DNA of 64,000 nucleotides from Nocardioides ginsengisegetis (GTDB taxonomy: Bacteria; Actinomycetota; Actinomycetes; Propionibacteriales; Nocardioidaceae), in the NCBI RefSeq assembly GCF_014138045.1, contig NZ_JACGXA010000001.1, positions 1,721,001 through 1,785,000 of the forward strand. Direction: 5' to 3'. Shown here piece after piece: positions 17,896-54,594 of the stretch. Both the position numbers and the translations under genes were made by a program. The notes beneath the pieces are model-generated. The model was given only the letters and a program-made list of their open reading frames with translations. It did not search any database and had not been told where the DNA came from. Position 1 is the first letter of the stretch; every line of letters begins with the position of its first letter.

Positions 17896-18034
17896 GGCGC
17901 CGAGGGCGCGCCGTTGGTGACCAAACGGTGTGTTACCGGGCCTCCTGGATGCCGTTGGTGACCAAACGGCATGTCGGCGTCACCCCCAGTCGGGGCGGGT
18001 GCCCCTGACGCGGCGGGCAGCAGGCTGTCGGCTC

Positions 18035-18095
18035 GCCGTTTGGTCACCAACGGCACGTCTTGGGCCGGTTTCGTTGCCGTTGGGGACCAAACGGC
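18035..18095. repeat. Paired palindromic repeat, inverted (A3/A4)
   Basis: GCCGTTTGGTCACCAACGGC, 21-bp gap, then GCCGTTGGGGACCAAACGGC. The two arms can pair over 20 positions with one mismatch and a 21-base loop, so the element could terminate both convergent transcripts. Confidence 0.75.
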
Positions 18096-18148
18096 ACGAG
18101 CGTGAGACCCCAACCGCCCCGGTAGCCCCAGGGGCCACAGGGGTCGGG

Positions 18149-31550: not shown

Positions 31551-32090
31551 TCAGGAGCGCCACTCGTCGCGCAGCAGGGCCCAGACCTCGAGGTCGTGGA
31601 AGTCCTCGCGCACTGGGAACACCTGGCGCAGCGTGCCCTCGTGGGTGAAGCCGAGCCGCTGGGGGATCGCTCGGCTCGGGACGTTGCCGGGGGAGCAGCG
31701 CCACTCGACGCGGCGGAGCCGACGCTCACCGAACGCCCAGTCGACCATGCTCTCCACGGCCCTGGTGACGATGCCCTGGCCGCGTGCCTCCCGGGCGAGG
31801 AAGACGCCGATCTCGGCGGTCCCGGCGCGGAGGTTGATGCTGGGGAACAGCGTGCCGCCCACGAGCACGTCATCGAGCCAGATCCCGAAGAGGCGACGGG
31901 TGTCGTCGGCCCGACCGCGGGAGAAGCTCTCCAGGAAACCCTTGGTGGCCTCGCTGGACTCGAAGTGCTCCCACGGCAGCCAGTCGTAGAGGTCGGTGCC
32001 CGAACGCCGGAAGAACGCGGCGAGCTCCTCGGCGTGCCAGGGCTCGAGGTCACGCAGTTCCGCGGGGTCGATTCGGTGTCGCATCAGCAC
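31551..32090 (-). CDS. GNAT N-acetyltransferase (RimJ/RimL type)
   Basis: 179 residues. AEIGVFLAREARGQGIVTRAV carries the acetyl-CoA binding loop (ARGQGI), and RVEWRCSPGNVPSRAIPQRLGFTHEG is the RimJ/RimL C-terminal half. It may acetylate a protein N-terminus or small amine. GTG start at 32090 is chosen because TACCGT (32097-32102, minus strand) lies six bases upstream; ATG at 32084 would be two codons shorter. Confidence 0.85.
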   Translation of the reverse strand: MLMRHRIDPAELRDLEPWHAEELAAFFRRSGTDLYDWLPWEHFESSEATKGFLESFSRGRADDTRRLFGIWLDDVLVGGTLFPSINLRAGTAEIGVFLAREARGQGIVTRAVESMVDWAFGERRLRRVEWRCSPGNVPSRAIPQRLGFTHEGTLRQVFPVREDFHDLEVWALLRDEWRS

Positions 32091-32227
32091 GGGGGCACGG
32101 TAGCCAGCCCGTGGGAGCCGGAGGGCGAACGACACCCGTGTCGTTCCCGGAGGGGAGTGGCACTGGGTGTCAATGTCGGGGGCGTGTACGGCGGGGCCGA
32201 TTGTGATGCGGTGCGAGGGAGTGATCA

Positions 32228-32518
32228 GTGGAGCCAGAGATCGTGCGGCTACTGGTGGACGCGCTCACGGCAGAAGAAGAAGACAGGCGCGACCTCCGCC
32301 GCGTGGTCGTCTCCGCCAGCGACTTCGACAGCGCGGTCAGGGGCGCTCACCTGGTCTTTCCGGAGTGGCGCCTCGGCCAGACGAGCTGCAACGTCCTCCG
32401 AGCCTGGCGACCAGATCTGTACCTGGAACTGGCCGGGACCGAGGTGGACCCCTTCTACCGAGACGACCTCCTGCCCGAGTTTCATCGCTGGCTTGCTGAC
32501 CGCACGGCGGGGGACTGA
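32228..32518 (+). CDS. Hypothetical protein (96 aa)
   Basis: Acidic, soluble protein beginning with GTG after GAGGGAG at a 6-7 base distance. Contains FPEWRLGQTSCNVLRAWRP and a C-terminal FHRWLAD helix. No family recognised. Its stop lies 43 bp from the putative dif site. Confidence 0.6.
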   Translation: MEPEIVRLLVDALTAEEEDRRDLRRVVVSASDFDSAVRGAHLVFPEWRLGQTSCNVLRAWRPDLYLELAGTEVDPFYRDDLLPEFHRWLADRTAGD

Positions 32519-32561
32519 GGAAACGGCTCCTGCTCCATCCGATGGAGGTCCGCAACACAGA

Positions 32562-32589
32562 AGTTGACATAATGTCAGTTATCGGCGAT
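32562..32589 (-). other. dif: Putative chromosomal dif site (XerC/XerD recombination site)
   Basis: Read on the minus strand: left arm ATCGCCGATAA (11 bp), central CTGACA (6 bp), right arm TTATGTCAACT (11 bp). The 11-6-11 layout, the ATAA...TTAT inner ends and the TTATGT-AA core of the right arm are those of bacterial dif sites (for comparison the E. coli and B. subtilis right arms start TTATGT). It sits in non-coding, relatively AT-rich DNA. It is the site where XerCD resolves chromosome dimers during FtsK-driven segregation. Confidence 0.8.
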
Positions 32590-32645
32590 ATGGAAACGGT
32601 CGTCGGAAGGGGCTGAGATCCTGCCGAGGACCGGTCCGCATGCAT

Positions 32646-32706
32646 GCCGTTTGGTCCCCAACGGCATGAAATTGCAGTCCTGACGTGCCGTTGATGACCA
32701 AACGGC
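32646..32706. repeat. Paired palindromic repeat, inverted (cluster B)
   Basis: GCCGTTTGGTCCCCAACGGC (32646-32665), 21-bp gap, GCCGTTGATGACCAAACGGC (32687-32706). Same unit structure as the clusters at 17.9-18.1 and 54.4-54.6 kb. The gap sequence resembles that of the 54361 pair (about 15 of 21 positions agree). Confidence 0.8.
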
Positions 32707-33018
32707 ATGGTGCACGCGTCCCGGTGTCCGTTGCCATAGAGCTCCGGGACACCGAGTTCTGTCAGAGCGATCCTCAGCGACGTCGTGTCGCGACGCCGGC
32801 GACATTTCCGCGTCACGGGCACCTGGTTGGCGCGTGCTTGCCGAGAATGCCCCGTCGACGCGGCACGACCTCGCGCCAGGCGGTCCGGCGGTCCACGCCC
32901 GGCCAGCTGCGCCGACCCGACCCCCGGATAACTGCTGGATACCGGGCATTATGCAGCAAACGACACCCTTGTCATTCGGGACCGGCGTTGGGGGTGGTCG
33001 TCGCTAGCGTCGCCGTCC

Positions 33019-34059
33019 ATGAAGGGCAACCTGCTGGTGCACGACGCCATCGACGGCTGGTTCCTGGCGCGGGCGCCGCGCAAGGACTCGCCCCACACGC
33101 GCGCGGCCTACACGCGTGACCTGACCGCGATCATCACCGTCACCGCGGCACACCTCGGCCGCACCGTCGACGACCTGCGCGTCGGCGACCTGACGCTGTC
33201 CGTGCTGCGCCACGCCTTCGGCACCTGGTCGGAGGGTCGGGCGGCGGCGAGCATCCGTCGTGCCCACTCGACGTGGAGCGGCTTCTTCGAGTACCTCGTC
33301 TCCGAGGAGCACCTCGACGGCTCCCCCATGCCCGGCGTCGGCAAGCCCAGGTCGCCCCAGCGGCTGCCCAAGCCCTTCGCCGAGGACGACGCCGCCCGGA
33401 TCGTGCGGACCCTCACCGACGCCGCCGTACGCCGTCGCCAGCCCTGGCCCGAGCTCGACGCGGCCGTCGTGCTCACCGCGATGGTCACCGGCGTCCGCTC
33501 GGCCGAGCTGCTCGCCGTCGACATCGGCGACGTCACCCGCACGGCAGGCAACGAGCGCATCAAGGTGCTCGGCAAGGGCGACGCGGAGCGCTCGATCCCG
33601 GTGGAGCCGGTCCTCCTGGACTTCCTCGACTCCTACCTCGACAGCCGGCGGGCCAGATTTCCCGGCACCGCGCGCCAGCGCGGCGTCACCAGCGACGGCG
33701 ACCCGTGGGCCTGGTGGCGACCCCACGACCCGTTGTTCGTCGACCGGACCGGCCAGCGGATGCGCACCGGCGCGCTCCAGTACCTCGTCGAGCTCGTCTA
33801 CCGCGATGCCGGCGTCAACGCGGCGCGTGCCCGGGGCGCGCTGGTGCACGCGCTGCGCCACACGGCTGCCACCCGACTGGTCGAACGCGGCGGCACCGCG
33901 GTCGAGCTGATGGACTTCCTCGGCCATCGCTCGCTCGCGACCTCGCAGGGCTACCTCGCCTCGACCGCCGCCGGGGTGCGCGCCGCCGCGGCCCGCTCCC
34001 CCGTCTACGGGCTGCTGTCCGCTCCGGTGCCGCCCCCGGAGCGCGACGCCCCCGACTGA
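33019..34059 (+). CDS. Tyrosine recombinase (XerC/D-like integrase)
   Basis: 346 residues with a complete catalytic set: R160 (TGVRSAELL), K186 (VLGKGDAER), H277 and R280 (HALRHTAATRL), H303 (GHRSLAT) and nucleophile Y312 (SQGYLAS). An N-terminal SAM-like DNA-binding domain occupies residues 1-115. TAGCGT (33005-33010) is eight bases before the ATG. There is no adjacent tRNA, excisionase or phage gene, so it does not look like a prophage integrase. It lies 429 bp from the putative dif site; whether it is the housekeeping XerC or XerD or a third recombinase cannot be decided here. Confidence 0.88.
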   Translation: MKGNLLVHDAIDGWFLARAPRKDSPHTRAAYTRDLTAIITVTAAHLGRTVDDLRVGDLTLSVLRHAFGTWSEGRAAASIRRAHSTWSGFFEYLVSEEHLDGSPMPGVGKPRSPQRLPKPFAEDDAARIVRTLTDAAVRRRQPWPELDAAVVLTAMVTGVRSAELLAVDIGDVTRTAGNERIKVLGKGDAERSIPVEPVLLDFLDSYLDSRRARFPGTARQRGVTSDGDPWAWWRPHDPLFVDRTGQRMRTGALQYLVELVYRDAGVNAARARGALVHALRHTAATRLVERGGTAVELMDFLGHRSLATSQGYLASTAAGVRAAAARSPVYGLLSAPVPPPERDAPD

Positions 34060-34068
34060 GAACGCTTC

Positions 34069-36429
<2,361 letters not shown>

Positions 36430-54360: not shown

Positions 54361-54421
54361 GCCGTTTGGTCCCCAACGGCATGAAATCGGGGTCCGGACC
54401 TGCCGTTGGTGACCAAACGGT
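54361..54421. repeat. Paired palindromic repeat, inverted (C1/C2)
   Basis: GCCGTTTGGTCCCCAACGGC, 21-bp gap, GCCGTTGGTGACCAAACGGT. Arms are complementary except two positions. Begins 25 bp after the kamA stop and could form a 20-bp stem in the kamA transcript. Confidence 0.8.
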
Positions 54422-54494
54422 GAGCTGCCGGCGGGTCGGAGGTCCCGGGCGCGCCCCAGGCCGCTCCGCCGACCCGTCCGACACGACGAGCGAT

Positions 54495-54555
54495 GCCGTT
54501 TGGTCACCAACGGCATGTTCGACCGCGTGAAACGTGCCGTTGGGGACCAAACGGC
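54495..54555. repeat. Paired palindromic repeat, inverted (C3/C4)
   Basis: GCCGTTTGGTCACCAACGGC, 21-bp gap, GCCGTTGGGGACCAAACGGC; same arms as the pair at 18035-18095. Lies 39 bp beyond the end of the Lrp gene. Confidence 0.8.
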
Positions 54556-54594
54556 AACGCTCGGCACTCCCGGGCTGGGCGCTGCACGGTCGGA

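What the first reader, a model, noticed from the sequence alone, without database searches (positions are those of the whole stretch)
32562..32589. Putative chromosomal dif site: the window may contain the replication terminus
On the minus strand: ATCGCCGATAA, six-base centre CTGACA, TTATGTCAACT. This has the 11-6-11 plan of XerC/XerD sites, with inner ends ATAA and TTAT and the strongly conserved TTATGT-AA right half. It is in a non-coding, AT-richer island. Bacterial chromosomes carry one dif, near the terminus.
Basis: partly seen in the sequence, partly recalled or inferred. Interest (0 to 1): 0.75.

Follow-up and report, generated by a model that had tools for sequence, protein, structure and literature searches.

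The report
Chromosome dif with twin Xer module
The 28-letter sequence is the chromosome's dif site, where joined daughter chromosomes are separated, and beside it lies a third Xer-type recombinase gene with its own dif-like site, an arrangement shared by many actinobacteria.

Summary
The 28-mer is real, unique in its genome and is the chromosomal dif. Its core occurs in 57 of 58 genomes (own included), exactly once in 52. It lies 0.42-0.50 of a chromosome from dnaA in the 22 relatives placed. In its own genome the polarised motif GGGGGAG reverses within 1.6 kb around it (217 of 221 sampled copies agree). That part is ordinary.

The surprise is next door. Window 33019-34059 encodes an intact tyrosine recombinase that groups with neither XerC nor XerD; both lie elsewhere in the genome. 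Relatives sit beside dif in many actinobacterial genera: 66 of 80 GTDB loci have dif within 6 kb. A second 11-6-11 palindrome (window 32932-32959) was found in all 81 loci, of 90, whose dif could be tied to the gene. It is usually 0.3-0.8 kb from dif, even where the gene is 2-7 kb away. Relatives on Mycobacterium/Rhodococcus plasmids carry a similar palindrome upstream (9 of 10 sampled).

Best reading: a second, single-recombinase resolution module kept at the terminus beside XerCD/dif. Gene, site and their linkage are shown by sequence; binding and dimer resolution are inferred.

The parts
32562..32589 (-). dif: XerC arm ATCGCCGATAA, centre CTGACA, XerD arm TTATGTCAACT
   Evidence: unique; 57 of 58 genomes; polarity switch
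32932..32959 (.). second dif-like site ('X site'): CTGCTGGATAC-CGGGCA-TTATGCAGCAA, 8 of 11 arm pairs complementary, 59 bp before the recombinase start, 374 bp (start to start) from dif on its XerC side
   Evidence: conserved in N. ungokensis L151; only match within 1 mismatch to TGSATAAN6TTATSCA in the own genome
33019..34059 (+). third Xer-like tyrosine recombinase, 346 aa, catalytic R160, K186, H277, R280, H303, Y312 present
   Evidence: Phage_integrase; XerC model 145.5 bits against cut-off 335; catalytic residues invariant; own clade; Ka/Ks 0.093 against N. ungokensis
31689..33321 (.). interval in which GGGGGAG polarity reverses; it contains both dif and the X site
   Evidence: 217 of 221 sampled copies agree with one switch in this interval

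Best explanation
The 28-mer is dif, the site at which XerC and XerD resolve chromosome dimers. About 0.4 kb away on its XerC side sits a complete second module: a third Xer-type tyrosine recombinase and its own 28-bp dif-like site with near-symmetric arms. I propose that this recombinase acts alone on its own site, like XerS/difSL or XerH/difH, and that the site is held beside dif because the FtsK-sorted terminus is the only place where a chromosomal resolution site can work. The terminus would then carry two independent resolution sites, the second probably taken from a plasmid resolution module. SHOWN by sequence: dif identity and terminus position; an intact recombinase distinct from XerC and XerD; a conserved palindrome near the gene; conserved nearness of the palindrome to dif; similar recombinase and palindrome on plasmids. 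INFERRED: that the recombinase binds and recombines the palindrome, that it resolves dimers, that FtsK is involved, and the plasmid origin.
For: dif. Linkage: in the 58-genome set all 10 relatives' homologues at E<=1e-25 lie within 1.3 kb of dif; in GTDB contigs 66 of the 80 loci kept (of 308 found) have dif within 6 kb, 65 of them 5' of the gene; the reversed pattern scored 0 in 985,544 bases. Second site: present in 76 of 76 loci with dif in reach, plus 5 more with longer reach; site-dif 259-1197 bp in 74 of 76. Where the gene lies over 2 kb from dif, the site stayed within 0.8 kb of dif in 16 of 18 loci. Background: 0 such palindromes in 439,007 bases of 22 non-carrier dif loci; 0 strict and 2 relaxed in 682,457 bases of the own genome. 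At 0 mismatches the site core occurs once in each of 7 carriers and in none of the other 51 genomes. Arms covary: 5.46 matched outer pairs per site against a mean of 4.56 when dealt anew, 0 of 2000 as high. Plasmid copies: 9 of 10 sampled have the palindrome 5' of the gene. Purifying selection: Ka/Ks 0.013-0.159 in 8 pairs. Two canonical Xer genes besides it in all 11 carriers tested. GGGGGAG reversal interval holds both sites.
Against: No biochemistry. The module is patchy: in the window's genus only the own genome of 37 has this clade (N. ungokensis is a further carrier), so it is dispensable. In 9 of 90 loci no link of gene to dif could be shown; five of these are Acidimicrobiia MAGs in which I found neither site. 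The window's own site is imperfect (8 of 11, one inner base off), and Lentzea sites are asymmetric (7 of 11). The absence of GGGGGAG between dif and the X site (3 in 27 kb) is not special: non-carriers show the same desert around dif. In L223 and L181 the X site lies 4.2 and 1.8 kb from dif.
Confidence: 0.55

Rival explanations
1. An integrative element (IMEX-like) or its remnant that entered at dif and brought its own integrase; the palindrome is an attachment or accessory site.
For: A recombinase gene next to an attachment site is the usual integrase layout; elements are known to enter dif (PMC9765430 and PMC2731167, passages). The 1.48-kb dif-uvrA gap of the window is 185 bp in G010 and 58 bp in G032, which lack the gene. 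The carrier genus g3 (probably Kribbella) is nested among other families in the tree, so the module has moved between lineages.
Against: Only one dif per carrier genome at the tested stringency (6 of the 7 g3 carriers, the seventh having a second, 1-mismatch hit on another contig); no cargo between gene and uvrA (10 bp) in the window; same arrangement in many species of Amycolatopsis and Lentzea; purifying selection; no close relative in phage records (best 30% identity among listed hits) and none in viral contigs.
Confidence: 0.2
2. The recombinase is a helper or regulator of XerCD/dif: it binds the second site and loops to dif as an accessory complex, without recombining its own site.
For: Conserved 0.3-0.8 kb spacing and one-sided placement (70 of 76 on the XerC side).
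Against: All catalytic residues invariant in 32 aligned relatives; relatives occur with the palindrome on plasmids where no dif-like site was seen within the 6-9 kb read in 9 of 10 at up to 2-3 mismatches.
Confidence: 0.12
3. The palindrome is only an operator through which the recombinase controls its own gene; nearness to dif is a founder effect.
For: In many loci the palindrome lies 30-110 bp before the start codon, over the promoter region.
Against: In 16 of 18 loci with the gene over 2 kb from dif the palindrome stayed beside dif, far from the gene; the layout is that of a recombination core (11-6-11, inner ATAA/TTAT).
Confidence: 0.08
4. The 28-mer is not dif but an unrelated look-alike.
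For: None found.
Confidence: 0.01

Closest known systems
XerC/XerD-dif (chromosome dimer resolution), e.g. suggested Frankia alni dif (PMC3025954)
   Same: 11-6-11 layout, TTATGTCAA right half, one per chromosome, at the terminus; two canonical Xer genes in the genome
   Different: Nothing for the 28-mer itself; the extra recombinase and site beside it are not part of that system
Single-recombinase modules: XerS/difSL (gene immediately adjacent to its site, PMC5357621 passage), XerH/difH, Legionella/Coxiella XerL (PMC9765430 passages)
   Same: One simple tyrosine recombinase linked to its own dif-like site; the Coxiella version is plasmid-borne with its site next to the gene
   Different: Those are the only Xer system of their hosts; here XerC, XerD and dif are kept as well and the extra site sits beside dif. 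The centre is 6 bp, not 11 as in difSL
Resolution systems of large plasmids (own recombinase next to its site, PMC5357621 passage)
   Same: Mycobacterium and Rhodococcus plasmids carry relatives (39-44% identity) with a similar palindrome 5' of the gene
   Different: On the chromosome the module is tied to dif
IMEX elements and insertion sequences that target dif (PMC10132070, abstract in the listing)
   Same: Something inserted near dif, mostly on the XerC side
   Different: No second dif, no terminal repeats looked like an element, long-term conservation with purifying selection

Membership tests
Chromosomal dif (XerCD) | 28 bp, 11-6-11, conserved halves | tested here: met
Chromosomal dif (XerCD) | single copy per chromosome | tested here: met
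   1 match up to 3 mismatches; one core match in 52 of 58 genomes, two in 5, none in 1 (G006) at up to 1 mismatch
Chromosomal dif (XerCD) | opposite the origin | tested here: met
   22 of 22 relatives placed at 0.417-0.499 (7 lengths rounded to 0.1 Mb; a 23rd, G023, gave no dnaA hit). In the own genome dnaA is on another contig, so it was not measured directly
Chromosomal dif (XerCD) | convergence point of FtsK-type polarised motifs | tested here: met
   217 of 221 GGGGGAG; that FtsK reads this motif is not shown
Chromosomal dif (XerCD) | XerC and XerD encoded in the genome | tested here: met
   matches are below the TIGR02224 curated cut-off in all 14 genomes but form separate XerC and XerD clades
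Chromosomal dif (XerCD) | FtsK-dependent XerCD recombination at the site | not testable with these tools
   needs experiment
Single-recombinase Xer module (XerS/XerH/XerL type) | simple tyrosine recombinase with all catalytic residues | tested here: met
   (closest solved chain E. coli XerD 1a0p, E 3.5e-34)
Single-recombinase Xer module (XerS/XerH/XerL type) | own dif-like site linked to the gene | tested here: met
Single-recombinase Xer module (XerS/XerH/XerL type) | replaces XerCD (sole Xer system of the host) | tested here: not met
   two canonical Xer genes remain in 11 of 11 carriers; both placed by label and tree in 9, the second hit of G249 and G384 being partial and not placed
Single-recombinase Xer module (XerS/XerH/XerL type) | resolves chromosome dimers | not testable with these tools
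   needs experiment
IMEX / integrative element at dif | dif or dif-like copies at both ends | tested here: not met
   in the own genome; at most one dif in 13-kb loci at up to 2 mismatches
IMEX / integrative element at dif | mobile cargo | tested here: not met
   window: 10 bp between recombinase stop and uvrA-like gene; only one extra gene compared with G010 and G032

The most novel reading that the evidence does not exclude
Actinobacterial termini are twin-site: besides XerCD/dif, many genera keep a second, self-contained chromosome resolution system (third Xer plus its own palindromic site) pinned 0.3-0.8 kb from dif, recruited from plasmid resolution modules more than once and moved between families, yet found again beside dif.
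Probability: 0.5. Interest if true: 0.85.

Novelty: new variant of a known kind. Interest (0 to 1): 0.7.

Why it matters
Xer systems are described as either two recombinases on dif or one recombinase on its own site. Here both kinds appear to lie side by side at one terminus, with the second site held near dif even when its gene moves off. If it resolves dimers, it raises testable questions: why a circular chromosome would keep two resolution systems, whether FtsK serves both, and how plasmid resolution modules become chromosomal. It also supplies a ready source of recombinase-site pairs with changed arm specificity.

Tried and rejected
GC skew as terminus marker: too noisy. The recalled E. 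coli KOPS GGGNAGGG: weak polarity (left 39 forward/25 reverse, right 32/43); replaced by GGGGGAG, found by an unbiased 8-mer scan.

Inverted pair at 32643-32709 as the recombinase's site: rejected, not conserved in N. ungokensis and a multi-copy repeat.

A special FtsK-motif desert between dif and the X site: rejected after the non-carrier control showed the same desert near dif.

Phage origin: no relatives in viral contigs and only distant ones in the listed phage records; the X-site pattern has no match in viral contigs. Plasmid DNA like window 32100-33020: none.

Structure prediction was not done: the machine answered 'busy' seven times.

Print: no paper on a third Xer or second site beside dif was found in searches (open-licence PubMed Central only, so absence is not proof).

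Full report
OBSERVATION. The minus strand of 32562-32589 is ATCGCCGATAA-CTGACA-TTATGTCAACT. It has no other match with up to 3 mismatches in the genome, 4,460,265 bases in 6 contigs. The core CGATAAN6TTATGTNAA has one perfect and one 2-mismatch match.

IT IS DIF. The core GATAAN6TTATGTCAA (up to 1 mismatch) occurs in 57 of 58 genomes of the relatives set, own included: once in 52, twice in 5, not in G006; the backwards control gave 0. For 22 of 23 relatives tried, dnaA was found and dif lies 0.417-0.499 of the chromosome away (seven lengths rounded to 0.1 Mb; G023 gave no dnaA hit). In the own genome dnaA is on another contig, so the angle could not be measured there. An unbiased 8-mer scan found CGGGGGAG 149 to 1 polarised toward the 28-mer. 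For GGGGGAG, 217 of 221 copies in the sampled stretches fit one switch, between window 31689 and 33321; in 15 relatives' 20-kb dif loci 166 of 168 copies point toward dif (counted). The suggested F. alni dif matches at 22 of 28 bases (PMC3025954, passage). GC skew was not informative.

THE NEIGHBOUR. Window 33019-34059 (+) is a 346-aa tyrosine recombinase: XerC model 145.5 bits, well below its cut-off of 335. R160, K186, H277, R280, H303 and Y312 are invariant in 32 relatives. The own genome has two further hits, 29-32% identical. A TIGR02224 search gave exactly two canonical Xer genes in each of 14 genomes, 11 of them carriers, none above the curated cut-off. By BLAST label and tree, XerD was placed in 14 and XerC in 12 genomes; for G249 and G384 the second hit was partial and left out. 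In a 98-row tree (quick method, SH-aLRT only) XerC (100) and XerD (99) are separate from a 63-row group that holds the window's protein (100). The tool warned of long branches, including the join of the window's clade with the plasmid proteins, so that join is unsure.

LINKAGE TO DIF. In the relatives set 11 of 58 genomes have a homologue at E<=1e-25, own included; the 10 others all have dif within 1.3 kb. Three are in the window's genus, 36% identical ('clade B'). In GTDB contigs 308 relatives were found and the best 80 kept; 66 of 80 have dif within the 6-kb flanks, 65 on the 5' side, 63 with the XerC arm facing the gene; the backwards control was 0 in 985,544 bases. Genera include Amycolatopsis, Lentzea, Nocardiopsis, Kineococcus, Kribbella, Micromonospora, Actinosynnema and Nocardioides ungokensis (92% identical). 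Many rows are close relatives of each other, so these are not independent events. In an even phylum sample 26 of 396 genomes had profile hits at E<=1e-32; of 27 loci, 5 had dif in the 1.5-kb flanks, one of them on a 191-kb contig.

THE SECOND SITE. Alignments of the gap between dif and gene show one other conserved block just upstream of the gene: a dif-like palindrome, e.g. TTCATGCATAA-TCACTA-TTATGCATGAA in Amycolatopsis and TTCATGCATAA-TCGCCA-TTATCCAGCAC in Lentzea. The window has CTGCTGGATAC-CGGGCA-TTATGCAGCAA at 32932-32959, conserved in N. ungokensis. Of 90 loci (window, the 80, and 9 from the genome search) 76 have dif in reach and all 76 have the site; 70 lie on the XerC side and 6 on the XerD side. 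Site-dif distance is 259-1197 bp in 74 of 76 and under 0.8 kb in 70. Five further loci have dif 6.2-7.2 kb from the gene, with the site 403-648 bp from dif. Counting both, 18 loci have the gene more than 2 kb from dif; in 16 the site stayed within 0.8 kb of dif (exceptions L223 and L181). The site was chosen by palindrome quality within 7 kb of the gene, not by distance to dif. Nine loci remain unlinked: L152 and L186 (no dif pattern in the assembly), L172 (dif and site 700 bp apart, link to the gene not shown), L190 (dif at a contig end), and five Acidimicrobiia MAGs with neither site found.

CONTROLS. Such palindromes: 0 in 439,007 bases of 22 non-carrier dif loci, even relaxed; 0 strict and 2 relaxed in 682,457 bases of the own genome; 6 of 16,000 shuffled upstream windows against 51 of 80 real ones. 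Core TGSATAAN6TTATSCA at 0 mismatches: 7 of 58 genomes, exactly the 7 g3 carriers, once each and at the palindrome beside dif; at 1 mismatch the own site and 4 stray hits; the backwards control rang in 3 genomes. In the phylum sample 12 of 396 genomes match: 5 of the 7 strong carriers and 7 of the other 389. Arms vary together: 5.46 matched outer pairs per site among 59 distinct sites, against 4.56 on average and at most 5.00 when dealt anew.

PLASMIDS. 75 plasmid records have relatives at E<=1e-15 (a few are enterobacterial and distant). Of 10 stretches read, 9 have an 11-6-11 palindrome 5' of the gene, 30 to 954 bp away: TTSATGS-type in 4 of 5 Mycobacterium/Mycolicibacterium plasmids (L261 has none), TTGCTAS-type in 5 of 5 Rhodococcus plasmids.

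ORIGIN AND SELECTION. Two relatives without the gene, G010 and G032, have the same uvrA-like neighbour 185 and 58 bp from dif; in the window that gap is 1.48 kb and holds the site and the gene. Ka/Ks is 0.093 against N. ungokensis and 0.013-0.159 in 7 other pairs. In the window's genus (37 genomes) only the own genome has this clade, so the module is neither universal nor essential.

A NEGATIVE RESULT. GGGGGAG is nearly absent between dif and the X site (3 in 27,443 bases), but non-carriers have the same desert near dif (0 within 300 bp in 22 loci). This therefore does not show that FtsK treats both sites as end-points.

MECHANISM. The parts fit a one-recombinase system acting on its own symmetric site at the terminus, in parallel with XerCD/dif. 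Binding, strand exchange, FtsK dependence and dimer resolution are untested. Known single-recombinase systems replace XerCD (PMC9765430 and PMC5357621, passages), whereas here both are present. Searches of open-licence papers found no such pair described; subscription papers are not covered.

Noticed in passing
window 17910-18096, 32643-32709, 54361-54556; L305; L030 (C1 1.790 and 1.809 Mb); L315 (C1 1.547 Mb): Palindromic repeat GCCGTT-N8-AACGGC, mostly in pairs 41 bp apart. In 1,009,000 sampled bases of contig C1, six of seven exact loci lie between 1.739 and 1.810 Mb, around dif. A terminus-clustered repeat, REP-like or perhaps a terminus-domain binding site.
   Followed up: partly
The three are close relatives, so this counts as one case; it may be a second, separate module of the same plan.
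   Followed up: partly
whole contig C1 of the own genome: GGGGGAG is almost perfectly strand-polarised toward dif (217 of 221 sampled copies), a likely FtsK-orienting or architecture motif of this group.
   Followed up: partly
   Followed up: no
Amycolatopsis loci L156, L169, L170, L202 against L166, L168, L171, L175, L179, L184: The 6-bp centre of the second site is TGGCAA in some species and its reverse complement TTGCCA in others, as if the site had been inverted.
   Followed up: no
dif of the g3 (probably Kribbella) carriers, L054, L056-L059: The outer XerC arm reads ATGTCC in 5 of 7 carriers instead of the usual NNCGCC form; the one non-carrier G054 has AGCGCC.
   Followed up: no
window 34069-36429 (-): A 786-aa UvrA-like paralogue next to the module; members of this family are near dif in many loci of the genus, 17 members in the cluster.
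   Followed up: no
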